DNA of 64,000 nucleotides from Halomonas sp. Lineage in GTDB: Bacteria; Pseudomonadota; Gammaproteobacteria; Pseudomonadales; Halomonadaceae. Below are positions 41,393-63,728 of the stretch, one piece after another. Numbering within the stretch: the first letter of the stretch is position 1; every line of letters starts with the position of its first letter. The position numbers and the translations under genes are program-made. The notes under the pieces were generated by a model, which was given only the letters and a program-made list of their open reading frames with translations, was not told the origin of the DNA and did no database searches. Where the stretch lies: the NCBI RefSeq assembly GCF_029263665.1, contig NZ_JAJUFQ010000003.1, positions 62,001 through 126,000 on the forward strand, given 5' to 3'.

Positions 41393-42142
41393 ATGGAACG
41401 AACGTTTGACATAGAGTCGTTCATCAAGGCTCGCAAACAGACGCGAGTTGTCGGTGATCTCCTGCATGAACAGGCAACGGATTACCTTGATACGCTAGGA
41501 CTGTTGATTCGCCCCCAGACGATCTTTGGTGAATATCTCCAAGGTGCGCCACGAGGCAGTGGTAGAGAAGCCCAGCATGCTTTCAAGGAATTCAAGTCCC
41601 TGTTTGAAAGCACGGCCGGGGCAGCGCCATTTCGACTGATCCAGGAACTGGACGTTCCCCTGGAAATCCTCAGCTCTACCCCCCAACTGTACCCCTACGA
41701 ATACGACGTGTCCCTGGCGGGACGTGACAAGCCCCTGCGCGTCACCAGTCCGGTGCGCTGGATCGTCGGTTTCAAGGGCTTCGAGCTACAGCAGTTTCGC
41801 CAGATTATCAAAGACCCAAATCGCAGCACCGCCGAACTGTTCCGTTTTGTCGTGCATTACCTGATGCTCTTTTATTGCATCAATCGTGCGCCAGGCTTGG
41901 GGCGCCTGCTGCTGGGGCTGCGTTTTCCAGTCAGTTTCGAGAAGCTGACGGATTTTGGTGACATGCCATTCTGTGTCATAGGTTCTCCAGTGACATCACA
42001 TCTTCCAGATGAAAGCCTGATCCTGAGAAGCACGGAGATCGCTGGTAACAACACTTTCGAAGAGCTGATTGACGAGGCGGACGTCGCCGAAATGGAAGAT
42101 GCCGTCAAGGAACGCCTGATGAAGGCCATCGCCGCGATTTGA
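41393..42142 (+). CDS. Unrecognised protein, first gene of the T6SS operon
   Basis: 249 residues, soluble, no signal peptide. GGAAGCAGGAGGGAA lies upstream of the ATG. I do not recognise the family. Visible are a helical N-terminus (IESFIKARKQTRVVGDLL), a stretch QELDVPLEILSSTPQLYPYE, a basic middle (VTSPVRWIVGFKGFELQQF) and an acidic C-terminal helix (FEELIDEADVAEMEDAVK). It is none of the core Tss proteins, all of which except the tip proteins are accounted for. Position 55 bases before tssB suggests an accessory sheath or regulatory factor specific to this T6SS type. Function unknown. Confidence 0.6.
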   Translation: MERTFDIESFIKARKQTRVVGDLLHEQATDYLDTLGLLIRPQTIFGEYLQGAPRGSGREAQHAFKEFKSLFESTAGAAPFRLIQELDVPLEILSSTPQLYPYEYDVSLAGRDKPLRVTSPVRWIVGFKGFELQQFRQIIKDPNRSTAELFRFVVHYLMLFYCINRAPGLGRLLLGLRFPVSFEKLTDFGDMPFCVIGSPVTSHLPDESLILRSTEIAGNNTFEELIDEADVAEMEDAVKERLMKAIAAI

Positions 42143-50382: not shown

Positions 50383-50982
50383 ATGACATCACGCAGGGAA
50401 TCTTCAGCATTCATTCGCCATAGGGCCTGGCCACTGATCGTTGGGGGATTGGTGGTCACGGGCCTGCTCAGTGGTTGCGGTGTGGGGGGGCGTATTGGCA
50501 ACCAGATGGACGGCACGGTCGGGGATGTGCTGTTCGGCAAGAATGAGCGTGTCATCGTCGCGCTGGATGCCGACGAAGAGCTTAATCCGGATGCCGAGGG
50601 CAATCCGCTTTCCGTCGTCGTGCGTATCTACCAGCTTGACTCGCTGACGGCCTTCAATGCGGCGTCGGCAGACGAACTCTGGCGTAGCGGCAAGGACAGC
50701 CTGGGGGAGTCACTGCTGGCCGAGCGTGAAACCGTCATGTTGCCAGGGAAACAGGTCACGGATAGTGCTCCCATGAATCCCGACACCAAGTATGTCGGCG
50801 TGGCAGCTTTTTTCCGCCAGGTACCGGATCAACGCTGGCGCCTGGTATTCGACGCTGCCGAGATGCGCAAGGACGGCATTCTGACATCGCCAGATGGTGT
50901 GGCCTTGCATCTGGCAAATGATTACATCGAACCTGCGGACGATGACAGCCTGGAGTTGCTCGTCGCGGATAACGACAGCTGA
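50383..50982 (+). CDS. tssJ: T6SS outer-membrane lipoprotein TssJ
   Basis: 199 residues. The signal peptide ends in the lipobox LLSGC, Cys32. The mature domain is the TssJ beta sandwich: RVIVALDADEELNPDAEGNP, SVVVRIYQLDSLTAFNAAS, and VGVAAFFRQVPDQRWRLVFD. TssJ sits under the outer membrane and binds the C-terminal domain of TssM. The body is a little longer than the E. coli protein and has an acidic C-terminal tail. tssH ends 11 bases before. Confidence 0.95.
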   Translation: MTSRRESSAFIRHRAWPLIVGGLVVTGLLSGCGVGGRIGNQMDGTVGDVLFGKNERVIVALDADEELNPDAEGNPLSVVVRIYQLDSLTAFNAASADELWRSGKDSLGESLLAERETVMLPGKQVTDSAPMNPDTKYVGVAAFFRQVPDQRWRLVFDAAEMRKDGILTSPDGVALHLANDYIEPADDDSLELLVADNDS

Positions 50983-51028: not shown

Positions 51029-52372
51029 GTGAGCAAGCATAACCGTGTAATGTGGTCGGAAGGCATGTTCCTCCAGCCGCAACACTTTCAGTATCAGGAT
51101 GAGTATCACCAGCACCAGCTTGGAGAAGTCAGTGCGCGGGGCGGCGCCTTCAATTGGGGGGTGCAGGAGCTGGCCGTGGATGAAGACGCTCTGGCTCAGG
51201 GGCGTTTGCAGCTGACTCGGCTCAAGTTGGTATTCCCCGATGGCACCCTGGTCGATGCTCCACAGCATGACCCATTGCCCCCTGCGCGGGACCTTGGAGA
51301 GCTGAATGGAACGGCGGAGTGCAAGATCTACGCAGCCCTGCGTCTGGTCGAGCCGCACTCGCCCAATGTGGTGGATGAGCAACACCGGCGTGGCAATAAC
51401 CGTCGTTATCGACAGCGTTTCGAGCATGTGCCGGACCTGCTTGAGGGGGAAGTGGAAAACGAGCTTTCCCTGCTGGAGCTGAATGTCTTGTTGTTGCTGG
51501 AAGGGGACGACCTGGATGGCACCAGTCATTGCCCGTTGGTGGTGCTCAAGCGCAACGCTGCAGGTGGTTTTTCCGTAGAACGGGACTATGTGCCACCGTG
51601 CCTGCACCTGAGCAGTAATGATACTCTGCTGTCCCTGGCTCAGCGTCTGATCGGTGTGCTGCAGGCCAAGAACGAGGCACTTTCGAGCCGTCGGCGAGAA
51701 CGTGCGGACCAGGTCGCCGAGTTCGGTTCCAGTGACGTCACACTGTTCTGGCTGTTGTACACGGTGAATCGGGCATACCCCGATCTGGCGCACCTGCTCC
51801 AGCATCCGCGACTGCACCCTGAGCAGTTGTTCCGCTTCCTCAATGATCTGGTTGCCAGCCTGATGACTTTCTCCATGAGTCATCGACTCAGCGATCTGCC
51901 CATGTATCGTCATGAAGATCCGGCCGCTTCCCTCTTCCAACTGGACAGCATGGCTCGGGAACTGCTCGATACCGTCGTTCCCAATCAGTACATCCCCATC
52001 GCCCTGGAACAGACCAAGCCTTCCTATTATGTCGGCCGCTTGAACGATCCACGTCTGGTCGATGCGGATTTCTATGTCTGTGTACATGCGGACATGCCGG
52101 GTGCCAAGCTGATCGAGCTGGTGCCCCGGGCCTTCAAGGTTGGCTCTCCGGAGGACATCGAAGTCGTGGTCAACAGTGCCATGCCGGGCGGCACCCTGGT
52201 GCATGCCAGCCGTCTGCCGGTGGCCATTCCCGTGCGTCTGGACAACCACTATTTCGCGCTCGAACCGCGTGGGCGGATGTACGAGCGAATGATGGCAGCG
52301 CAGGCCATCTCCTTCTACGTCCCAGGCGGTTTTACCAATCTCAAGATTGAACTCATGGCGGTGCTGAAATGA
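51029..52372 (+). CDS. tssK: T6SS baseplate subunit TssK
   Basis: 447 residues from GTG 51029, with GGAAGGAAGGGA just before. The start is fixed by VMWSEGMFLQPQHFQYQDEY, the conserved N-terminus. TssK links the baseplate to the membrane complex. Further signature: LTRLKLVFPDGTLVDAPQHD, LFWLLYTVNRAYPDLAHLL and DNHYFALEPRGRMYE near the end. It ends in ATGA shared with tssL. Confidence 0.97.
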   Translation: MSKHNRVMWSEGMFLQPQHFQYQDEYHQHQLGEVSARGGAFNWGVQELAVDEDALAQGRLQLTRLKLVFPDGTLVDAPQHDPLPPARDLGELNGTAECKIYAALRLVEPHSPNVVDEQHRRGNNRRYRQRFEHVPDLLEGEVENELSLLELNVLLLLEGDDLDGTSHCPLVVLKRNAAGGFSVERDYVPPCLHLSSNDTLLSLAQRLIGVLQAKNEALSSRRRERADQVAEFGSSDVTLFWLLYTVNRAYPDLAHLLQHPRLHPEQLFRFLNDLVASLMTFSMSHRLSDLPMYRHEDPAASLFQLDSMARELLDTVVPNQYIPIALEQTKPSYYVGRLNDPRLVDADFYVCVHADMPGAKLIELVPRAFKVGSPEDIEVVVNSAMPGGTLVHASRLPVAIPVRLDNHYFALEPRGRMYERMMAAQAISFYVPGGFTNLKIELMAVLK

Positions 52373-53100
52373 ACCAGTACGTGGCGAACCAAGACCATAC
52401 CCAGGAGCAGGATGCGACGGATAGTACCCAGGCAACGCTGCGTACCCTGACTCAGGACTTCTTTTCCATGGTGCTCATGGTCCGGCGTGGCAGTGAAGCA
52501 CAAGGCGTCGACGAGTTCCTCGAGCGGGTCGAGAACTACTTCCAGGATCTGGAAAAAAGAGCATTGGCGGCTGGTTATACCCTGGAGCAGTTCCGTGATG
52601 CCCAGTATGCGCTGTGTGCCTTCCTCGACGAGAGCGTGCTTGGAGCAGGGGAAAGCAATATTCGCCATCACATCGAACTGCACCCATTCCAGTACAAGTA
52701 CTTTGGCGTGCACCTGGCAGGAGAAGGCTTCTTCGAGCGCCTTGAAGCCCTGCGCAGCGACGTCAAGGGCAATCTTGATGTGCTGGAGATCTACCATCTG
52801 TGCCTGGCGCTGGGATTCGAGGGCAAGTTCCGTCTCGAGCACCGCGATCAGTTGCGTTATATCGCCAATACCCTGGGACAGGACATTGCACGCTATCGCA
52901 AGGTGCCCCAGGAACTGGCTCCTGATTGGAAACTGCCTGACCAGGTAGGGCAGTTGCTGCGCTACGAAGTGCCGGTATGGGTTTATCTCGTGCTGATTGC
53001 CCTGCTGTGTGGCGTGGTTTACCTGATTCTCGGCGGCATTCTCGACGCTCGTGTCGATGCGCTGGTCGAGTCCCTGAAATCTCTGTTCGATGGCTCCTAG
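52369..53100 (+). CDS. tssL: T6SS inner-membrane protein TssL (DotU), without OmpA domain
   Basis: 243 residues. The cytoplasmic hook domain covers about 1-190, with QYALCAFLDESVLGAGESNI, HHIELHPFQYKYFGVHLAGE and LEIYHLCLALGFEGKFRLE. One C-terminal membrane helix (about 202-224, WVYLVLIALLCGVVYLILGG) is followed by only 15-odd residues. There is no peptidoglycan-binding extension, so this is the short TssL type that needs a separate wall anchor. Overlaps tssK by 4 bases. Confidence 0.97.
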   Translation: MNQYVANQDHTQEQDATDSTQATLRTLTQDFFSMVLMVRRGSEAQGVDEFLERVENYFQDLEKRALAAGYTLEQFRDAQYALCAFLDESVLGAGESNIRHHIELHPFQYKYFGVHLAGEGFFERLEALRSDVKGNLDVLEIYHLCLALGFEGKFRLEHRDQLRYIANTLGQDIARYRKVPQELAPDWKLPDQVGQLLRYEVPVWVYLVLIALLCGVVYLILGGILDARVDALVESLKSLFDGS

Positions 53101-53109
53101 GGGCGTGTC

Positions 53110-56100
53110 ATGAGGCGATTACTAGGAGTTCTGAAGAGTTTCTGGCTGGTATCGATCGTGCTGTGGTTGATCGGTGTCGGATTGTGCGTGTGGTGGATTC
53201 CACGACTCGGTGGCGGTCCCCAGCGTCTGGCCATTGCCGTGGCCCTGCTCAGTGCCGTCTGGCTGCTGGCCGTGGTGCTGCGCAAGTATCGCAAAGTGCG
53301 TGCCGACAGGGGCATCGAAGAGCTGGTCACGCTCGAAGTCAACCGGGAAGCCGCCAGTGCGGCCTCGCAGTCGGGAGACTACGAGGTCCTGCGTGAACGC
53401 CTCAAGGCTGCGCTGGGCATGCTCAAGGCGCGTGGTGGCAGTAAAAGCAGCTTGAGCGAACTGCCCTGGTTCCTTGTGGTCGGCCACTCAGCCTCGGGCA
53501 AGACATCATTGCTGAGTCGCTCCGGCCTCAATACCAGTGTGGCAGGGATTGGAGCGGAAACCGGCACTCAGTATTGCGATTGGTATTTCGGCAATGACGC
53601 GGTATTGATCGATACCGCCGGGCGTTATATTGCCGAGGAACAGCCTGCCCAAGAGTTTGCCGAGTTCCTCAAGCTGCTGGCCAAGCGGCGCAAGCGTAAC
53701 CCGATCAATGGCCTGGTGGTGGTCGTCGATCTGCCGGCGCTGCTGCGTGGTTCTCGGGAGGATAGCTACGCCCTGGCCCAGCAATTGATTGAGCGCATCG
53801 ACGAATACCACGCTGCGATGGATGCGGCCCCGCCGGTCTATCTATGCTTCAGCAAGACCGACCTGGTGCCGGGGTTCGTCGAGGCGTTCTCCCGCCTCGA
53901 CAGTGAGGCACGCCAGCGTCCATGGGGGATGTCTTTCTCTCTGGCGGAAATTCGCGGCAAGGGTCTGCGCCAGGCCTTCTCCGAGCGTTTCGAGTCTCTG
54001 GTAGCTTCCTTGCGTGCCCATGTGGATCGTCGGGTCATCGAGAGTGGACAGGATGCCAACAGCGAACTGTTGCGTTTCCCGGACTACGTGAATGAGCTCA
54101 GAAATCCTCTGATGGATTTCCTCGAACCGTTCGACCTGCGTCATAACCCGGACAGTGCACCGCTGGCTCGTGGCCTGTACTTCACCAGTGCGTTGCAGCG
54201 TGGTGATGTCATCGCACCGGTCTTCAATCAAGCGGCCAGCAAGATGTTTGCCTTGAACAGAACCGCGGAGACGACATCACAAGCGAGAGGTGAACGCAGT
54301 TACTTCATCCAGGGGTTGTTCCGCGATGTGGTGATCGCGGACCGCAACCTGGTGGAGCACCACTCACGCAATGGCCGTCGACGTTCCTTCCATCTGTGGC
54401 TGGTGGGAGCAGGGATGCTGGCAGGGCTGGGTGTCATCGGCCTGATGGCCCATGCCTTCTGGAATAACCGCACGGGGCTGATGAATTTCGAGGAACAGCT
54501 GGCAAGTGTGGAGCAGGCCGACGATGCCACCAAGCTCGAGACGTTGCAGGGAGAGCTGGCGCGCTTGCACCAGCAGCAGCGCGAGGGCGTGGCACTATGG
54601 GAGGATGCCGGGCTCGATAGTGGTGACAAGCTCCGTCCAGACCTGGAAGACACCTATTTCTCGGCTCTGAAAGATCAGGTTCTGGCGCCCATCGCGGCCA
54701 ATCTGGGGCAGCAACTGGCCGAGGTCGGGGCGCTGGCGGATTCCCTGGGGCTCGATGTTGAACTGCCGACTGCGGCTGCGGATAACCTGGATCAGCAGGA
54801 TTATCTTGCCAATGCGGCAGGTCAGGGAAGCGAGATGCTGGACCGCACAGGCGAACGCCTGCAGGACCGCCTGACCCAGCGCCCGACCTTGGGTAGCGTG
54901 CCGCGTTCTCCTGGTGAGCTGGCCAGCCGCCTGCGTGGTGAAGCCGACTATCGCCTGCGTGGCAGTGTCAATGATGCCTATTGGAGCGCCCGCTCAGATG
55001 GACGTGAAGCGCTGCGCGAAGGCGCGCGCAATGCCTGGGAGAATGCCCAGAACGGTGGGCTTGAAGAACAGTTGGCAGAAAGCGAAGCCCTGTCGGGTAT
55101 TGGTCCGTCATTCTCGGCGGCTGCACTCAGCCAGCTTGAGCCCAGTCAGGTTTCCGATCTAATCGATGCCTACGACGCATTGAAGCTTTATCTGGTGCTC
55201 ACGGATCCCGAGGCTCATCCTGAAGTCGACTTCGTCAAGGAAGCGTTACCGCGAGCCTGGCAACGCCTGGCCGAGCACGACAGCCAGGTGCCCCAGGGAG
55301 GCCAGCTGATCAGTGACAACGTGGCGCTTTATGCGGCATACCTGGAAGAGGGCAAGGCACCGGCCCTGGACAGAGACGAACGCCTGGTGGCCCAGGCACG
55401 TGCCAATCTCAAGGCCTTCCTGGTGCAGGCATCGCCAGCGGACCGAGAGTATCTGCGCCTGCGTCTGGCAGCAGAGAAACAGTTCCCTGCATTGACTCTA
55501 TCCGACATCCTGCCCAAGGCCGACCTACCGTTGATGTATTCCGGAGAAGCGGTACCCGCCTTCTTCACCCAACGGGTGTGGCAGGAGTTCGTCCAGCCTG
55601 AACTGGCGAAGACCTTGGCCTCGGATCTGAGTGTGGAGCGTGACTGGGTGCTGGAAGGGGACTCCGAACTGGATGCCGTGCAAAGCAAGGCCCAGTTTGC
55701 CCGAGCAGTGCTGGCACGCTACAAGCGCGACTACATCTATGCCTGGGAACGCTTCCTGGCCGGTGCTGGGGTACGTCGTTTCGAAGGGCTGGAAGCATCG
55801 CGCAAGAATCTCACTCAATTGAGCGACTACCAGCGTTCTCCGCTCAAGATCCTGCTGCAGGTCGTGGATGCCAACACGCGTTGGGACAACCCTGATGTCG
55901 AGCAACGTCAGGCGAGCGGAGACAGTGAGGAAAAGGTGCCGCAGGACAGCACTTCTCCAGGCTTCTGGAAGCGCACCGTGAACTGGGTGAGCGGGTCAGA
56001 CCAGATGGCTGAACAGGCACTGACACAAAGCAGCGACATGCCCTCGATCCATGATGGCATCCTGGCACGCCATTTCGAACCTGTCGGACAACTGTTCCGT

Positions 56101-57057
56101 ACCGATGCCGGTGCCGAGGACGATGCGACGCACATGGACCGCTATCTGTTGCTGCTGCGTCAGTTCAAGGTGCGCCTGGATAGCCTGGAACGCGGCGATG
56201 TCGGCAAGCGCACCAAGCAGTTGGTGAGTGATGTGATTGGTGGTCGTCCCAACGAGATCACCGAACTGCACAACTATGTGGCAGCCAATATCGACACTTC
56301 ACGTGACGAACTGGTGCAGTCCGTGCAGCGTCTGTTCCGCGACCCGGTGGACTTTGCCGTGGCCAGCCTCGATGGTCCGATATCCGGCCAGCTTGCCGGC
56401 GCCTGGGGCGAACAGATCTCGAGGCCCTGGAACAAGATGGTGAGTGGGCGTTATCCCGTCAGCAACTCCAGCAATGAGGCTTCGGTTCGCGACCTGCGTC
56501 ACTTCGTCGACCCGAACTCCGGCCTGCTGGCCAGCTTCGATGAGAACGAGGTAGGCAACCTGGCAGAAGCCAACCGCAATGGCGAGCCTCTGGTCGATCC
56601 GTTGATCACTGCCACCATTGCCCAGGGTACTGGCGTGGGAGAAGTGCTCGATAGCCTGGCGGATGTGGAGAATGGATTCGAGATCATGATCCAACCATCC
56701 CCAAATCTCACTGCCATCACCCTGTCGCTGGACGGGCAACAACTGGAATACCGCAATGGACCCCAGTCCTGGCAGCGCTTCACCTGGCCGGGCGATGGAC
56801 GCCAGGCGGGGGCACGGATGGATGTGATGACCTTCGGGGGAACTCGGGTCAAGGTATTCGATTTCCCTTCCCGCTGGGGGCTGCTGCGCATGGTGGATTC
56901 CGCCGATGTGACCAACCTCGATGACGTGCGTCAGCGTCTGACCTGGTACACCAGTGTGGGACCAGTGAGCATCACGGTGCGCAACTTCGGTGGTGTCAAA
57001 CTGACTGATCTCGACAAGGTCCGGCGCCTGCGCATTCCTGCGCTAGGAGCTCGATAG
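53110..57057 (+). CDS. tssM: T6SS membrane-core protein TssM (IcmF), full length
   Basis: 1315 residues. Two N-terminal helices (about 10-30 and 40-57), a cytoplasmic NTPase domain with intact Walker A GHSASGKTS at 125-133 and DTAGRY at 168-173, then a third helix near 420-445 (FHLWLVGAGMLAGLGVIGLM) and a long periplasmic part. The end has the family beta domain that binds TssJ: QRFTWPGDGRQAGARMDVMT and VFDFPSRWGLLRMVDSADV. TssM spans the periplasm and joins TssL and TssJ. The N-terminal GTPase-like part is unusual in that loops after the Walker motif differ from the common SGLxFP, which the second TssM keeps. Confidence 0.97.
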   Translation: MRRLLGVLKSFWLVSIVLWLIGVGLCVWWIPRLGGGPQRLAIAVALLSAVWLLAVVLRKYRKVRADRGIEELVTLEVNREAASAASQSGDYEVLRERLKAALGMLKARGGSKSSLSELPWFLVVGHSASGKTSLLSRSGLNTSVAGIGAETGTQYCDWYFGNDAVLIDTAGRYIAEEQPAQEFAEFLKLLAKRRKRNPINGLVVVVDLPALLRGSREDSYALAQQLIERIDEYHAAMDAAPPVYLCFSKTDLVPGFVEAFSRLDSEARQRPWGMSFSLAEIRGKGLRQAFSERFESLVASLRAHVDRRVIESGQDANSELLRFPDYVNELRNPLMDFLEPFDLRHNPDSAPLARGLYFTSALQRGDVIAPVFNQAASKMFALNRTAETTSQARGERSYFIQGLFRDVVIADRNLVEHHSRNGRRRSFHLWLVGAGMLAGLGVIGLMAHAFWNNRTGLMNFEEQLASVEQADDATKLETLQGELARLHQQQREGVALWEDAGLDSGDKLRPDLEDTYFSALKDQVLAPIAANLGQQLAEVGALADSLGLDVELPTAAADNLDQQDYLANAAGQGSEMLDRTGERLQDRLTQRPTLGSVPRSPGELASRLRGEADYRLRGSVNDAYWSARSDGREALREGARNAWENAQNGGLEEQLAESEALSGIGPSFSAAALSQLEPSQVSDLIDAYDALKLYLVLTDPEAHPEVDFVKEALPRAWQRLAEHDSQVPQGGQLISDNVALYAAYLEEGKAPALDRDERLVAQARANLKAFLVQASPADREYLRLRLAAEKQFPALTLSDILPKADLPLMYSGEAVPAFFTQRVWQEFVQPELAKTLASDLSVERDWVLEGDSELDAVQSKAQFARAVLARYKRDYIYAWERFLAGAGVRRFEGLEASRKNLTQLSDYQRSPLKILLQVVDANTRWDNPDVEQRQASGDSEEKVPQDSTSPGFWKRTVNWVSGSDQMAEQALTQSSDMPSIHDGILARHFEPVGQLFRTDAGAEDDATHMDRYLLLLRQFKVRLDSLERGDVGKRTKQLVSDVIGGRPNEITELHNYVAANIDTSRDELVQSVQRLFRDPVDFAVASLDGPISGQLAGAWGEQISRPWNKMVSGRYPVSNSSNEASVRDLRHFVDPNSGLLASFDENEVGNLAEANRNGEPLVDPLITATIAQGTGVGEVLDSLADVENGFEIMIQPSPNLTAITLSLDGQQLEYRNGPQSWQRFTWPGDGRQAGARMDVMTFGGTRVKVFDFPSRWGLLRMVDSADVTNLDDVRQRLTWYTSVGPVSITVRNFGGVKLTDLDKVRRLRIPALGAR

Positions 57058-57124
57058 AGCAGATGGACTCGATAGGGATGGAAGAGCTGGACATGGCAAT
57101 GGCAGAGCGCAAGGAGGCTGCTTG

Positions 57125-58063
57125 ATGATCGGATATTTCGGCAAAGTGCCGGGAAGTGCCGACTTCGTAGCACATAACGCTGCCTACAAGGATGTGCGTG
57201 AGCTGGATAGCTGGCTGCAGGATGCACTTGCCTGGATGGCCGAGTGCGATGCTGGCTGGCATGAGCGCTTCGATGCTCTGCCGATGTGTTTCTTCCACTT
57301 CCGTGCAAGCAATGGCCACTGGCTTCTAGGCGGAATGCAGAGTTCGCGAGATGCCAGTGGGCGACGCTATCCCTTGCTGGTCTTCCAGCGCCTGGGCGTC
57401 GCGCCCGGCGTGGAAGGCAGCGTGGGAGTGCACACCCTCAGCGAGACCTTCTGTGGTCAGTTACGAGGGCTTTTGCAACGCCTGATTCACGGTGATGCCG
57501 GGGTGCAGGAACTGCACCGCTCCATGGAAGAGCTGCGCGAGCTGGGCGAGGGTGATCTGAAGTTGCAGCAACGCTTGTTGCAGCGCTTTCTCGAGGACGT
57601 GCGTTACAGCGATCTGTCGCGAGCACTGAATCCCGGTTTCCCGGAATTCGTTGCCAGTGCCTTTGCCCTGCGCATGCAAGGTCTGCGGCAACGCCTGCTG
57701 GTGGGTGAGGCATTGCAAGCGGTCATGCCATTGCCCGCCGAACGTGCGCTCAAGCGCCCAGCTGCAGATCTGTGGCTGCACTGGCTGGATAGAAATGGCC
57801 CCAGGGCCAAAGCCAGTCTGCTGGTGGATGACTTCATGCGTCCTCAGCTATGGCGCTTTGCTCGTATTGAGAGAGAAGCCTTCCGCCTGTTGGCGGGAGT
57901 GGCGCCGCAGGAGGCGCGCTTTGATGTCCTGGAGTCCTTCGAGCATTTCGATCCGCAATGGGCGTCTGTGGAACCGCCTTCAGCGGAGCTGGACATGGGT
58001 ACTTATATAACGCGGTTTCCCGGTGAGGAGAACGCTATGCGAATGGATGGACCCGCGTTGTGA
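57125..58063 (+). CDS. tagF: T6SS-associated protein TagF (ImpM)
   Basis: 312 residues from ATG 57125, nine bases after AAGGAG. The signature IGYFGKVPGSADFVAHN opens the protein, followed by WHERFDALPMCFFHFRASNG and GRRYPLLVFQRL. TagF holds the T6SS off after translation in Pseudomonas and is opposed by the PpkA kinase; in Agrobacterium it works with Fha. No ppkA, pppA or fha gene is in this window. The stop overlaps the ATG of the TssM-OmpA gene by one base. Confidence 0.92.
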   Translation: MIGYFGKVPGSADFVAHNAAYKDVRELDSWLQDALAWMAECDAGWHERFDALPMCFFHFRASNGHWLLGGMQSSRDASGRRYPLLVFQRLGVAPGVEGSVGVHTLSETFCGQLRGLLQRLIHGDAGVQELHRSMEELRELGEGDLKLQQRLLQRFLEDVRYSDLSRALNPGFPEFVASAFALRMQGLRQRLLVGEALQAVMPLPAERALKRPAADLWLHWLDRNGPRAKASLLVDDFMRPQLWRFARIEREAFRLLAGVAPQEARFDVLESFEHFDPQWASVEPPSAELDMGTYITRFPGEENAMRMDGPAL

Positions 58064-60528
58064 TGAACCGATTGAAATATTACTTCGTGAAATATCGTCC
58101 CTATGTACTGGGCGTGGCCTTCTTCCTGCTGATCTTCGTGATCTGGGGGTTGGGGGCGCTGATGGGCTTCTCCTCGCTGGATAGCCTGCTGGTGGGTATT
58201 GTGGTCTTCCTGGTGGTGTCGGCCTTGTATCTGCTGCTGCTCTATCGTGGCGTAGGCGAGAAGAAGGACGATGTAGAGTCGCTGCTGATCCAGAATGCCG
58301 ACGATGCGGTGCTGGGAGCCGCTCCGGAGGACCGCGAAGAGGTCAGTCTGTTGCGTGAGCGTCTGCTCAATGCCCTGGAGAGAATGAAGAAGGGGCAGGG
58401 TGGCAAAGGGCGCAAGCGTGACCTGCTGTATCGCCTGCCCTGGTACCTGGTCATTGGTCAGCCCGCGGTAGGCAAGAGCACGCTGGTCTATCGCTCTGGC
58501 CTGGATTTTCCGTTCGCCGACCGTGAAAGTGCCCGGGTCGCCGGTGTTGGTGGCACCCGTCATTGTGACTGGTTCTTCAGCAGCGAAGCTGTATTGCTGG
58601 ATACCGCTGGTCGCTATATCAGCGATGAGGAAGAAGCCGGCAAGTGGCGGGCATTCCTTGACCTGCTCAAGCGCCACCGCCCACGCCGCCCACTCAATGG
58701 CTTGATCGTGGCCGTGAGCGCCGATGAGTTGATCGACAGCTCCGCCAGTCAGCGTGATGTACTGGCTCGCCGCCTGCGCGAACGTATTCAGGAGACTCAC
58801 GAGCTGCTGGGTACGGTACTGCCTATCTATCTGGTCTTCACCAAGAGTGACCTGATTCCTGGCTTCCGCCAGTTCCATGAGCAACTGGACCCGGCCCAGC
58901 GCGAAGAAGTGCTGGGAATGTCTTTCCCTCATCAGGACTTTGCCAATGCCGACTGGCGCCAGCGTTTCTCCACGGCGCTAAAGCGCATGGTGGTGCGTTG
59001 CCAGGCCATTGGCACGCAACGCTTGATCGAAGGGGATATCCAGCATACCCGTGCTGAACCTGCTGCTCTGGAATTCCCGCTGGAGCTGCGTGCTCTGTCA
59101 CCATTGCTATCGGACTTCGTCGGCGCATTGCTGCAGTCGAATCCCTATCAGTCATCACCGCTGCTGCGTGGTTTCTATTTCACCAGTGCGCTGTCCGATG
59201 GTCAGCCGGCCCTGGGGGAACATGCACAGAACGTCGAGCGTCGCTTTGCACTTTCCGGAGCCCGTCCTGCCAGCGCCAATCGGGATGGCAAGAGCCTGTT
59301 CGTGAAAGGGCTGTTCTCCCAGGTCATCCTGCCCGACCAGCACCTGGTCGGGCTGTATGCTGGCCCCAATGGCGCGCGTCGACGTCAATTGCGCTGGTGC
59401 TGGGCGGCGGGTGCGGCGGCATTGGCGCTCTGTATCGCCTGGGGCGTGTCCTTCTACCACAACGCCGACGAACTCAGTGCCATTGACGCGAAGCTGGCGC
59501 AGGCCAAGGCATCGGATGCCGACCATACAGCGTATACCCAGTGGGAGACACTGGACGCCCTGCGTGGTGTGGCCCAGACCTATAGCCAGCGTCATGAACA
59601 GGGGGTTCCCTGGTCCATGGGCTTTGGCCTCTATCAGGGTGATGACGTGGAGCCGGCCATCCGTGACACCTATTTCACGCGCCTGAAAAGCGACATGCTC
59701 GACCCGGTGGCGGATAACCTCAATCAGTCCCTGTTCGTGCTGCCGACCATTCCGGTGTATCGCTCAGGGGAAGGTCAGCGCATGACCGCCATCGATATCG
59801 AAAGTGTCGAACCCAATGCTTTGCCACCGGACAACTCGCCCCAGGCGCTGGCCGAGTTCGGTAATGCCACGCTGGGTACCTATCTGGAGCTGTCACGCAC
59901 GCCGCGCGACAAGATCGATGCTGATCTGCTGAGAGCGCACCTGCCGGATTACTGGTATCCGTCCATCACACAAGCCCGTGATGGCCAGCGCGACCCGCGT
60001 GATCTCGGTTATGCCAGTCGCCAGATCGACTTCTATGCCGAGCAGGTGCATGCCGATGATGTGCCCCGGATCGACGACAACGCCTTCCTCATCTCGTCGA
60101 GCCGCAATTACATCGACGGACTGCTGGACCGTTCTCTACGTACCGTGGAAACCATCACTCTGGAATCCGACACCTTGTTCGCATTCGGCCGTGCGGACTT
60201 TGCCGGCCTGCAGGGTGAAGGGCAGCGTCAGCTCAATCGCATCGCAGAGCGGCTCAGCAATACCCCCAATGTGGGGCGCATCACCATTACCGGCCATGCC
60301 GACCAGATTGGTTCGGCATCGGCCAACAAGCGTCTCTCGCTGGAGAGGGCGCAAACAATACGGACGTATTTGGTCGGCAAGGGCCTCGCGCCTGAGCTGG
60401 TCGAAGCCGTCGGGGCTGGCAATGAACGCCCCCTGGTGCAGTGCGACGGCAGCATGAGTCGTACCGAAAGGATTCGCTGTCTGGCACCGAACCGCAGGGT
60501 GGAGATCGAGGTTCGTGCACTCAACTGA
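58063..60528 (+). CDS. Shortened second TssM fused to a C-terminal OmpA domain
   Basis: 821 residues. Two N-terminal helices (about 14-34 and 41-61) precede an NTPase domain with Walker A GQPAVGKS at 132-139, DTAGRY at 180-185 and TKSDL at 260-264. A third helix lies at 445-465. Only about 100 periplasmic residues still resemble TssM (IRDTYFTRLKSDMLDPVADN, matching LEDTYFSALKDQVLAPIAAN in the full-length TssM of this cluster). The large remainder, with the TssJ-binding domain, is absent. Residues about 697-819 are an OmpA domain: ITGHADQIG, NKRLSLERAQTIRTYLV and NRRVEIEV, with the Asp and Arg that bind diaminopimelate. It is expected to anchor the T6SS membrane complex to the cell wall. Confidence 0.88.
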   Translation: MNRLKYYFVKYRPYVLGVAFFLLIFVIWGLGALMGFSSLDSLLVGIVVFLVVSALYLLLLYRGVGEKKDDVESLLIQNADDAVLGAAPEDREEVSLLRERLLNALERMKKGQGGKGRKRDLLYRLPWYLVIGQPAVGKSTLVYRSGLDFPFADRESARVAGVGGTRHCDWFFSSEAVLLDTAGRYISDEEEAGKWRAFLDLLKRHRPRRPLNGLIVAVSADELIDSSASQRDVLARRLRERIQETHELLGTVLPIYLVFTKSDLIPGFRQFHEQLDPAQREEVLGMSFPHQDFANADWRQRFSTALKRMVVRCQAIGTQRLIEGDIQHTRAEPAALEFPLELRALSPLLSDFVGALLQSNPYQSSPLLRGFYFTSALSDGQPALGEHAQNVERRFALSGARPASANRDGKSLFVKGLFSQVILPDQHLVGLYAGPNGARRRQLRWCWAAGAAALALCIAWGVSFYHNADELSAIDAKLAQAKASDADHTAYTQWETLDALRGVAQTYSQRHEQGVPWSMGFGLYQGDDVEPAIRDTYFTRLKSDMLDPVADNLNQSLFVLPTIPVYRSGEGQRMTAIDIESVEPNALPPDNSPQALAEFGNATLGTYLELSRTPRDKIDADLLRAHLPDYWYPSITQARDGQRDPRDLGYASRQIDFYAEQVHADDVPRIDDNAFLISSSRNYIDGLLDRSLRTVETITLESDTLFAFGRADFAGLQGEGQRQLNRIAERLSNTPNVGRITITGHADQIGSASANKRLSLERAQTIRTYLVGKGLAPELVEAVGAGNERPLVQCDGSMSRTERIRCLAPNRRVEIEVRALN

Positions 60529-60733: not shown

Positions 60734-61279
60734 ATGGCATTTGATGCATATCTGAAAATTGACGGTATCCCGGGCGAAAGTCTGGATGCCAACCACAAGG
60801 ACTGGATCGAGCTGCTGAGCTTCGAGTTTGGCGCCAGCCAGGCCACTTCCGCGACTGCCAGCTCTGCTGGTGGTGCTTCTGCCGAGCGTGTCAATGTCAG
60901 TGACTTCGCGATTTCGAAGTTCATCGACAAGGCATCTCCGAAGCTGTTCGAGGCTTGCTGCCGCGGCCAGCACATCAAGGAGATCACGCTGCATGTCAAC
61001 CGTGCTGGCGGTGATCAGGTGCGCTATCTCGAAGTGAAACTGGAAGAAGTCATCGTGTCCTCCACTGAAATGGAAGGCATGAGCAGCTTCTCCCAGAATG
61101 CTGCTGGTGGTGCTACCGATTCTGTGCATGATTCGCGTCATGATCTGCCTTCCGAGGCAATCAAGTTCAACTTCGCGCGTATCAAGGTCACCTACACCCA
61201 GCAGAAGCGTCAGGACGGCCAAGGTGGTGGCAACATCACTGGTGGCTGGGACCGTACTCGCAACCGCGTGTACTCCTGA
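60734..61279 (+). CDS. hcp: T6SS tube protein Hcp
   Basis: 181 residues. Hcp forms hexameric rings stacked into the secreted tube. The N-terminus MAFDAYLKIDGIPGESLD, HKDWIELLSFEFG, ISKFIDKASPKLFEACCRGQ and the FNFARIKVTYT strand are the family pattern, with a 20-residue GQGGGNITGGWDRTRN tail. Codon use is more biased than in the neighbours (Gly GGT, Ser TCC), fitting high expression. It has its own leader and a stem-loop behind it. Confidence 0.97.
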   Translation: MAFDAYLKIDGIPGESLDANHKDWIELLSFEFGASQATSATASSAGGASAERVNVSDFAISKFIDKASPKLFEACCRGQHIKEITLHVNRAGGDQVRYLEVKLEEVIVSSTEMEGMSSFSQNAAGGATDSVHDSRHDLPSEAIKFNFARIKVTYTQQKRQDGQGGGNITGGWDRTRNRVYS

Positions 61280-62558: not shown

Positions 62559-63728
62559 ATGTCCGGGGCATCGATCTACGATCTGCTGCACGAGTATGAA
62601 GCGCCTGTTGTCGAGGAAGAGGAAGCTGCACCGCAGAACCTCACTTACCAGGCTGACCGACTGTACCTGATCAGTGGCATCGCCCTGACGGCCGCCGGCT
62701 CGGTTGCCATGGGAAAGATGCCGGAACAGGCAGTATCGGAGCTGTCACAGGATCTGAAGGACACGAGAGGCCAGCGCCTGCCAGTCTATGGCGTGAAGCA
62801 GGCCATGTCGGTGGAAAGCCTTGCAACCCTGGGCGCGGAAGGCAAGGCACAGCGTCTGCATGAGCTGGTTCAGACGCTGATGCATGATGTCATGCTGCTG
62901 CTGAGCGATCTACCCAAAGGTAATGGCTGTGACATTGTGCTGAGCGCTCCGCTGCACTCGACAGAAGCGCAACGCCTGATCCTTGAGCACATGCGCAGCG
63001 CCATGATCAAAGGTGGGTTCGAGGCCTGCCTGGGCGATATCCGTCATGTCGCCAGTGGTTGGGATCCGCATGCTGTCCTGGACACGGGAGAAGAAGGCGG
63101 CCAGCCCTATGTGCTGTGGCTTAGTGTCGATTCGCTACTCAATCGGGCGGATGTTGCCGCACTGCACCAGCGCGGCATCCTGAGGTTGCCGGAACAACCG
63201 GCAGGGGTCTGTCCGGGAGAAGCCGCTGTGGCACTGCTGATCCGGCGAATGCCCGAGGAAGAAGACGCTGACCTGGAAGGCTGGCAGCTTGATCGGGCTC
63301 AGGTCATGGAACGTCAACCACGCCCTAAGGGCCGTAACAGCAAAGCCACTGGTAGTAGTGATCTCGACAAGCTGCTCGAATTGATCTGGCCCGAAGACAA
63401 GGTGCCTGAAGGGCCTTCTTGGGTCGTGGTGGATGCACTGAGAACGGCAGACAGCAGTCAGGAAGTATCGAATAGCTTGAGCGAGCGTTGGCCTGGGCTG
63501 CACATCGTCACCGGTGGTATCAGCGTGGCCAATTGGTGTGGCTGGCCGGGAGAAGCTCTGACCGCACTTCAACTGATATTGGCAATGGCCGATCTGCCTG
63601 CCGAAGACAGTGCGCTGGTGCTCAATGTGTGCGAAGACAAGCTCGCCCGCGCCCTGGTGCTGCAAACCTGTGCGCAGACCCCGGAGCCTGAACAAGAGGC
63701 CGCAGGCACTGCTGACAAGGAGAACTGA
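62559..63728 (+). CDS. Thiolase-fold (ketosynthase-like) protein between tssA and vgrG
   Basis: 389 residues. It is not a standard Tss protein. Parts follow the beta-ketoacyl-synthase pattern: LYLISGIALTAAGSVAMG near the start, LSVDSLLNRADVAALHQRGIL at about 188-208 in place of the usual GVDSLLD block, CPGEAAVALLIRR near 219 in place of PGEGAAALLL, and GWPGEALTALQLILAMADLP near 328-347. The catalytic Cys and His residues of true ketosynthases are not seen. Such proteins occur next to VgrG and DUF2169 adaptors in other T6SS clusters, so an effector-loading role is likely but inferred. It starts three bases after tssA and ends five before vgrG. Confidence 0.6.
   Translation: MSGASIYDLLHEYEAPVVEEEEAAPQNLTYQADRLYLISGIALTAAGSVAMGKMPEQAVSELSQDLKDTRGQRLPVYGVKQAMSVESLATLGAEGKAQRLHELVQTLMHDVMLLLSDLPKGNGCDIVLSAPLHSTEAQRLILEHMRSAMIKGGFEACLGDIRHVASGWDPHAVLDTGEEGGQPYVLWLSVDSLLNRADVAALHQRGILRLPEQPAGVCPGEAAVALLIRRMPEEEDADLEGWQLDRAQVMERQPRPKGRNSKATGSSDLDKLLELIWPEDKVPEGPSWVVVDALRTADSSQEVSNSLSERWPGLHIVTGGISVANWCGWPGEALTALQLILAMADLPAEDSALVLNVCEDKLARALVLQTCAQTPEPEQEAAGTADKEN

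What the first reader, a model, noticed from the sequence alone, without database searches (positions are those of the whole stretch)
58063..60528. A second, shortened TssM with an OmpA anchor inside one T6SS cluster
The protein keeps two N-terminal helices, an NTPase domain with intact Walker A, the third helix and a short TssM-like periplasmic piece, then ends in an OmpA domain. The full-length TssM (53110-57057) is also present and is clearly related, since both have a DTYFxxLK block after helix three. This is not a gene remnant: the frame is open, Walker residues and OmpA ligand residues are kept, and it overlaps tagF. It predicts a mixed complex in which some TssM subunits reach TssJ and others hold peptidoglycan.
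Basis: partly seen in the sequence, partly recalled or inferred. Interest (0 to 1): 0.85.

Follow-up and report, generated by a model that had tools for sequence, protein, structure and literature searches.

The report
TagP, a wall-anchoring short TssM
This Halomonas-type gene encodes TagP, a protein already named from sequence in Pseudomonas putida: a shortened relative of the secretion-machine protein TssM whose outer part is replaced by an OmpA-type domain, and it likely works beside full-length TssM to tie the machine to the cell wall.

Summary
In detail: 58063-60528 is an open 821-aa frame with TssM-like membrane stretches, G-domain motifs and TssM homology to about residue 691, then an OmpA domain. 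The kind is known: P. putida K1-T6SS has the same architecture, named TagP1; passages I saw call it in-silico or without data. New here: (1) of 275 Halomonadaceae genomes, TagP and its partner TssM occur in the same 30; (2) none of 94 TagP loci shows an OmpA-bearing TssL; (3) TagP and partner TssM are sister clades, 99/98; (4) TagP's G domain is closer to 33 other TssMs (47.8%) than the partner's (39.0%), 18 of 18 hand-picked pairs, with no such gap in the rest of the cytoplasmic part; (5) 89 of 91 TagP-linked TssMs carry 40 or more extra membrane-proximal residues, against 1 of 25 measurable others, that one from a broken TagP locus. Best reading: an obligate second TssM-type subunit that anchors the complex to peptidoglycan.

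The parts
58063..60528 (+). tagP: TssM-related, OmpA-ended protein, 821 aa
   Evidence: the three Pfam domains are found in 26 of 26 members of alignment A1
58084..58260 (+). TagP residues 8-66: hydrophobic stretch, read as two transmembrane helices
   Evidence: hydropathy
58423..58857 (+). TagP residues 121-265: G domain (GxxxxGKS 132-139, DTAG 180-183, TKSD 260-263), closer to other TssMs than the partner TssM's G domain is
59398..59454 (+). TagP residues 446-464: third predicted helix
   Evidence: hydropathy
59473..60144 (+). TagP residues 471-694: periplasmic TssM-like region
   Evidence: profile matches the TssMs of L219, L220 and L221 in one piece
60145..60525 (+). TagP residues 695-821: OmpA-type domain; D747, R762 and Cys 794/806 invariant in 92 frames
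57122..58063 (+). tagF
   Evidence: PF09867, TIGR03373
53110..57057 (+). partner full-length tssM, with helical and C-terminal (IcmF_C) domains
   Evidence: PF14331, PF06761, PF21070, PF06744; aligns to EAEC TssM 6hs7
54739..55173 (+). partner TssM residues 544-688, the stretch that holds the insertion seen in TagP-linked TssMs
52369..53100 (+). short tssL (DotU), no OmpA domain
50383..50982 (+). tssJ lipoprotein
   Evidence: PF12790, TIGR03352
50894..52372 (+). tssK frame (longest start; the family match begins at residue 64, so the true start is probably downstream)
   Evidence: PF05936 64-490
60734..61279 (+). hcp (tssD)
   Evidence: PF05638
61446..62555 (+). tssA
   Evidence: TIGR03363

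Best explanation
The protein is a TagP: a TssM relative that stops after the membrane-proximal part of the periplasm and ends in an OmpA domain, which likely joins full-length TssM and short TssL in the secretion machine's membrane complex and is predicted to hold that complex to peptidoglycan. Shown: domain order, conserved motifs, near-constant gene order, pairing with one TssM lineage in the family surveyed, and a tree in which TagP and that TssM are sisters. Inferred: (a) origin by copying this lineage's tssM and gaining an OmpA domain of a different lineage from those of TssL and TagN; (b) co-assembly through the helices and cytoplasmic part shared with TssM; (c) wall binding through D747/R762; (d) division of labour, in which TagP keeps the less altered nucleotide-binding domain while TssM reaches TssJ with its C-terminal domain.
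For: Same architecture named TagP1 in P. putida K1-T6SS. TagP and partner TssM in the same 30 of 275 family genomes. Of 94 TagP loci, 89 keep the order TssJ-K-L-M-TagF-TagP-Hcp-TssA among the eight labels looked for (one with a second hcp); full TssM in 91, TssL in 93, OmpA-bearing TssL in 0. Sister clades 99/98; next sisters are three clusters with a separate OmpA protein in the slot after tagF. Over 23 hand-picked loci TagP diverges less than TssM (mean p-distance 0.41 vs 0.48) and its distances track TssM's best (r 0.945), by a small margin (six other genes 0.77-0.93). G-domain retention, 18 of 18 pairs. TssM insertion in 89 of 91. In Citrobacter rodentium a truncated TssM and full-length TssM are both needed, at 3-4 short to 1 full (PMC4256274).
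Against: No interaction, localisation or phenotype data for TagP were found. EAEC TagL joins through TssL, so TagP could too. Deleting A. baumannii tagN, which sits in the same slot, did not impair secretion and an A. baylyi tagN mutant secreted more Hcp, so wall anchors may be dispensable. The idea of one anchor per cluster is weakened by controls: of 52 loci without an intact TagP, only 19 have an OmpA-bearing TssL, 26 have a TssL without an OmpA match and 7 show no TssL. The partner TssM keeps the GK, DTAG and KxD cores, so it may bind nucleotide as well.
Confidence: 0.72

Rival explanations
1. TagP is a separate peptidoglycan anchor that docks on TssL, as TagL does, and never takes a TssM position in the complex.
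For: TagL in EAEC is an inner-membrane PG-binding protein that binds TssL. TagP lacks the TssM part that reaches TssJ.
Against: TagP keeps TssM's membrane stretches, G domain, remaining cytoplasmic part and inner periplasm, is sister to the partner TssM, and tracks it best of the seven cluster genes compared, though by a small margin.
Confidence: 0.2
2. TagP is mainly a regulator: its nucleotide state tunes firing, and wall binding only positions it.
For: The G domain is the most conserved part (43% of positions at 98% or more, against 38% for OmpA and 17% for the rest of the cytoplasmic part). A tagN mutant in A. baylyi secretes more Hcp.
Against: It lies with the structural genes tssJ-K-L-M and hcp in 89 of 94 loci with tagF and in 2 more without it; the OmpA positions checked are as invariant as the GKS motif.
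Confidence: 0.12
3. TagP forms its own homomeric complex, an alternative to TssM used in other conditions.
For: It has its own membrane stretches and G domain.
Against: It lacks the C-terminal IcmF_C domain, so it could not by itself span to TssJ (inference); the shared gene order suggests co-expression.
Confidence: 0.04
4. A decayed tssM duplicate joined by chance to an ompA fragment.
For: None beyond its shortness.
Against: 76 distinct TagP sequences in 94 loci, purifying selection, invariant motifs.
Confidence: 0.01

Closest known systems
TagP1 of Pseudomonas putida K1-T6SS (PMC5363822 passages; review PMC10433429 passages)
   Same: TssM derivative with PF00691 in place of the periplasmic C-terminal part; beside tagF in the structural operon; TssM-TagF-TagP order also found in two P. 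putida loci, L118 and L122
   Different: Different genus; 57-58% identical (best segment) to those two P. putida loci. KT2440's own protein was not fetched.
TssM / IcmF
   Same: Membrane stretches, G domain, cytoplasmic part and inner periplasm; NCBIfam TIGR03348 names TagP 'TssM' at 459.5 bits over a cut-off of 388
   Different: No IcmF_C or helical C-terminal domain; OmpA domain instead
TagN (Acinetobacter, Burkholderia T6SS-1)
   Same: Operon slot after tagF; OmpA family
   Different: 254-255 aa in Acinetobacter, with a reported export signal and OmpA domain; 262-282 aa in the three TagN-like proteins read here, whose OmpA domains lack the Cys pair and form another lineage
TagL and long ('specialised') TssL
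   Same: Peptidoglycan-binding OmpA-family domain on an inner-membrane T6SS subunit
   Different: Carried by TssL or a TssL-binding protein, not by a TssM; TssL-type OmpA domains form a separate clade
Short TssM1[1-807] of Citrobacter rodentium (PMC4256274 abstract and sections 9 and 12)
   Same: A TssM lacking the TssJ-binding end that is needed together with full-length TssM
   Different: Made, with the full-length form, from one gene by transcriptional slippage; no OmpA domain mentioned in the parts I read

Membership tests
TagP (sense of Bernal 2017) | TssM-derived N-terminal part | tested here: met
TagP (sense of Bernal 2017) | OmpA (PF00691) domain instead of the TssM C-terminal part | tested here: met
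   PF00691 706-799 and no PF06744/PF21070
TagP (sense of Bernal 2017) | Encoded in a T6SS structural cluster with tagF and a full-length tssM | tested here: met
TagP (sense of Bernal 2017) | T6SS subgroup 4B1 (TssB tree) | tested here: inconclusive
   Groups with Pseudomonas clusters in the TssM/TagP trees; the P. putida loci L118 and L122 share the gene order but were not rows of those trees; no TssB tree was made and KT2440 was not fetched
TagP (sense of Bernal 2017) | Binds peptidoglycan | not testable with these tools
   Recalled wall-site residues conserved; binding needs an assay
TssM | C-terminal TssJ-binding (IcmF_C) domain | tested here: not met
   Absent in TagP, present in the partner TssM
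TagN | Small exported OmpA-only protein | tested here: not met
   TagP has membrane stretches and a TssM part; OmpA lineages differ
Specialised TssL | DotU domain fused to OmpA | tested here: not met
   No DotU match in TagP

The most novel reading that the evidence does not exclude
In this T6SS lineage the membrane complex is built from two TssM-type subunits with divided labour: TagP carries the canonical nucleotide switch and the wall grip, while full-length TssM, with a drifted G domain and a new membrane-proximal periplasmic insertion, is the arm to TssJ. It would be the two-gene version of what Citrobacter achieves by slippage from one tssM.
Probability: 0.4. Interest if true: 0.7.

Novelty: new member of a known kind. 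Interest (0 to 1): 0.42.

Why it matters
TagP is named in the literature but I found no experiment on it. The pairing, sister relation, uneven G-domain change and matching TssM insertion turn 'an accessory wall binder' into a testable claim that one T6SS lineage has an obligate two-TssM membrane complex. It also bears on annotation: TIGR03348 passes its cut-off on this TagP and NCBI names many of the TagP-type hits 'TssM', so clusters can appear to have two TssMs while the wall anchor is hidden.

Tried and rejected
Origin by fusion of TssM to the TagN already in that slot: not supported, since TagP's OmpA domain lies apart from TagN's (TagN clade 100/99, no Cys pair). Origin of the OmpA domain from long TssL: not supported (TssL clade 100/98; 94.5 bits to porin OmpA against 48.6 to the TssL form). 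TagP is TagN under another name: rejected. TagP-like fusions outside the group: the L137 match over residues 1-815 proved to be a TssM and a long TssL, and L128-L138 hold no TagP. The midpoint-rooted FastTree left the origin of TagP open; I rely on the rooted tree, where the tool warns of long branches (L174, L175, and L174 joining the outgroup). Loss of conserved columns (TssM-only 13, TagP-only 3; Fisher p 0.007) used a region chosen after seeing the data; the identity contrast (1 of 320 circular shifts as large) is better, but its 18 pairs are related. The PDB search with the TagP profile listed the best 60 of 72 sequences, matched in or near the OmpA region, none to a TssM. Choices that bear on counts: rows were hand-picked for (18 of 94 TagP loci, 33 of 52 others; 15 of 94 TagP; one short OmpA row dropped; 23 loci); one search used 45 TagP after thinning; one search dropped 2 of 94 frames by length. 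Frames are the longest open ones, so some lengths (L072, L181) are overlong.
Full report
Observation. The frame 58063-60528 (+) is open and codes for 821 aa. Pfam finds IcmF-related_N, part of IcmF-related, and OmpA, each above cut-off. Residues 132-139, 180-183 and 260-263 are GxxxxGKS, DTAG and TKSD. In 92 aligned TagP frames (of 94; two fell outside an 800-900 aa filter) the motif positions checked and D747, R762, C794, C806 are invariant, but for K261 at 99%. Hydropathy gives a hydrophobic stretch 8-66, read as two helices, and one at 446-464. The gene overlaps tagF by 1 or 4 bases depending on the start. Selection is purifying (dN 0.14-0.15, dS 0.89-1.17 to three congeners). The closest database protein, 98% identical over the region searched, is from Halomonas binhaiensis; the window's genome itself is unnamed.

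How much of TssM is kept. BLASTP aligns TagP 15-557 to TssM 4-536. A profile of TagP's periplasmic region extends the homology: it matches the TssMs L219, L220 and L221 in one piece (hmm 6-216, 4-212 and 3-216 of 221), and the partner TssM in two pieces, 460-543 and 689-773. So TagP follows TssM to about TagP 691, and the OmpA domain starts at about 695. The cut corresponds to about residue 773 of the partner TssM and, through the alignment with 6hs7, to about residue 575 of the 1129-residue E. coli TssM. What lies outward of that, including the C-terminal domain that binds TssJ, is missing.

It is already named. Bernal and co-workers describe in the P. [quoted passage not shown] groups 2 and 4B; [quoted passage not shown] Aschtgen 2010 itself is not held. 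Eight searches of the open-licence PMC library, whose listings I read, and passages from the papers I opened showed me no experiment on this TagP; most subscription papers are not covered. 'TagP' is also used for a PAAR-domain protein of A. baumannii (PMC11348943, listing).

Distribution. The 120 listed of 200 hits to TagP 440-821 all carry PF14331, PF06761 and PF00691 (candidates were capped). TagP's C-terminal half (E up to 1e-30) occurs in 30 of 275 family genomes, 2 of 369 class-wide including the window's own and 5 of 390 order-wide, own included, four of them in the same family. The partner TssM (E up to 1e-100) occurs in 30 of 275 family genomes, and the two lists of handles are the same. 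In one of them, G210, tssM is broken. No such pairing survey was made for Pseudomonas.

Gene order. I examined 94 loci with a TagP frame: the window, 63 named (L125 left out because its TagP frame is broken) and 30 from the genome search; species overlap between the sets and there are 76 distinct TagP sequences. Looking only for eight labels, 88 show exactly TssJ-TssK-TssL-TssM-TagF-TagP-Hcp-TssA and one adds a second hcp. Full TssM is present in 91, TssL in 93, TagF in 91. Exceptions: L110 has only the distal part; L096 and L156 (one species, judging by the same chromosome length) have a broken tssM; L114 and L126 lack tagF. No TagP locus has an OmpA match in TssL. Of 52 loci without an intact TagP, 19 have an OmpA-bearing TssL, 26 a TssL without an OmpA match and 7 no TssL in the stretch. 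The 26 include 12 of 13 Halomonas clusters of another type. These 52 were picked as TssM relatives and are not a random sample, and my OmpA profile was built from TagP-type domains and may miss others. So TagP never meets an OmpA-bearing TssL here, but the absence of TagP does not bring one.

Origin. In a rooted IQ-TREE of 18 TagP, 18 partner TssM and 33 other TssM N-terminal parts (hand-picked rows), TagP (100/99) and partner TssM (100/100) are sister clades (99/98), and the next sisters (100/98) are L219-L221. Those three clusters carry tssM-tagF and then a 262-282 aa OmpA protein of the TagN kind in the slot that TagP fills. TagP's OmpA domain is not TagN's: the OmpA tree sets TagN and TssL-type domains apart, and TagP joins (96/98) one Pseudomonas domain, L066, that has the same C...C pair but sits on a long branch; two other pair-bearing domains, L026 and L242, lie in the same half of the tree, which is weakly supported (63/64). 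The exact donor is open. This lineage seems to fill the slot with a TssM copy that has its own OmpA domain instead of a separate TagN.

Division of labour. TagP's stem in that tree is 0.61 changes per site and the partner TssM's 1.45. The difference is local: in TagP residues 121-265, TagPs are 47.8% identical to the 33 other TssMs and partner TssMs 39.0%, and in 18 of 18 pairs TagP is closer; in 266-445 the figures are 24.7% and 25.3%. One of 320 circular shifts of the column scores gave as large a contrast. Both keep the core motifs (GK of Walker A, DTAG, KxD), so TssM may still bind nucleotide. Against the reading, TagP has itself lost conserved columns outside the G domain (104, 272, 378 by the strict rule; 14 of 92 columns fall under 50% in TagP and 22 in TssM). 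That the Walker A motif matters for a TssM is reported for A. tumefaciens (title seen in a reference list).

A matching change in TssM. In 89 of 91 TagP-linked TssMs the region between the two profile matches holds at least 40 extra residues (median 116 over the 91); L088 has 34 and L126 none. Of 52 other TssMs, 27 could not be measured (16 without a match, 11 matched on one side only); of the 25 that could, one reaches 40: L125, which comes from the broken TagP locus. The three sister TssMs L219-L221 have no insertion. TagP-linked TssMs have a median length of 1322 aa against 1193. The insertion lies in the membrane-proximal periplasm, where TagP also has its TssM-like region, so it is a candidate contact site; that is inference.

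Mechanism. Background from the passages read: TssL and TssM sit in the inner membrane, TssM's end binds TssJ, and TagL or a long TssL ties the complex to the wall. In C. rodentium a TssM lacking its end and full-length TssM are both required, at 3-4 short to 1 full (PMC4256274, abstract and sections 9 and 12), so a need for long and short TssM has a precedent, though that paper leaves the role of each form open. TagP fits as a gene-encoded short TssM with a wall grip. Co-assembly, stoichiometry, wall binding and nucleotide use are untested.

Verdict. A real, conserved gene, found in many Pseudomonas and some Halomonadaceae genomes, already named, functionally open. The window adds a Halomonas-type member; the comparative results add a testable two-TssM hypothesis.

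Noticed in passing
window 54739-55173; 89 of 91 TagP-linked TssMs: Partner TssMs carry a membrane-proximal periplasmic insertion (median 116 aa); among 25 measurable other TssMs only L125, from a broken TagP locus, reaches 40.
   Followed up: partly
window 58063-60528: NCBIfam TIGR03348 (equivalog, TssM) passes its cut-off on TagP (459.5 vs 388 bits), and NCBI names many TagP-type proteins TssM.
   Followed up: yes
L096/L156 (Salinicola tamaricis by record title of L096): tssM is split into several frames while tagP is intact; sequencing error not excluded.
   Followed up: no
L125 (Pseudomonas sp. TH10): tagP and tssM frames are both broken; described only.
   Followed up: no
L110 (Pseudomonas cerasi, complete chromosome): TagP, Hcp and TssA are present but no tssJ/K/L/M/tagF match in the stretch upstream; TagP matched from residue 52 only.
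   Followed up: no
L114, L126: TagP clusters without a recognised tagF; L126 also lacks the TssM insertion.
   Followed up: no
L091, L106 (records titled Marinobacter): TagP clusters that fall beside Chromohalobacter and Salinicola rows in the tree; transfer or mislabelled record.
   Followed up: no
window 41393-42142 and 62559-63728: Genes before tssB and after tssA with no Pfam match; the second has a weak ketoacyl-synthase-like match far under its cut-off.
   Followed up: partly
L066:20154-20948: An extra OmpA lipoprotein-like gene downstream of the cluster whose OmpA domain scores closer to the TagP profile (147 bits) than the TagN-like ones do (56-62 bits).
   Followed up: partly
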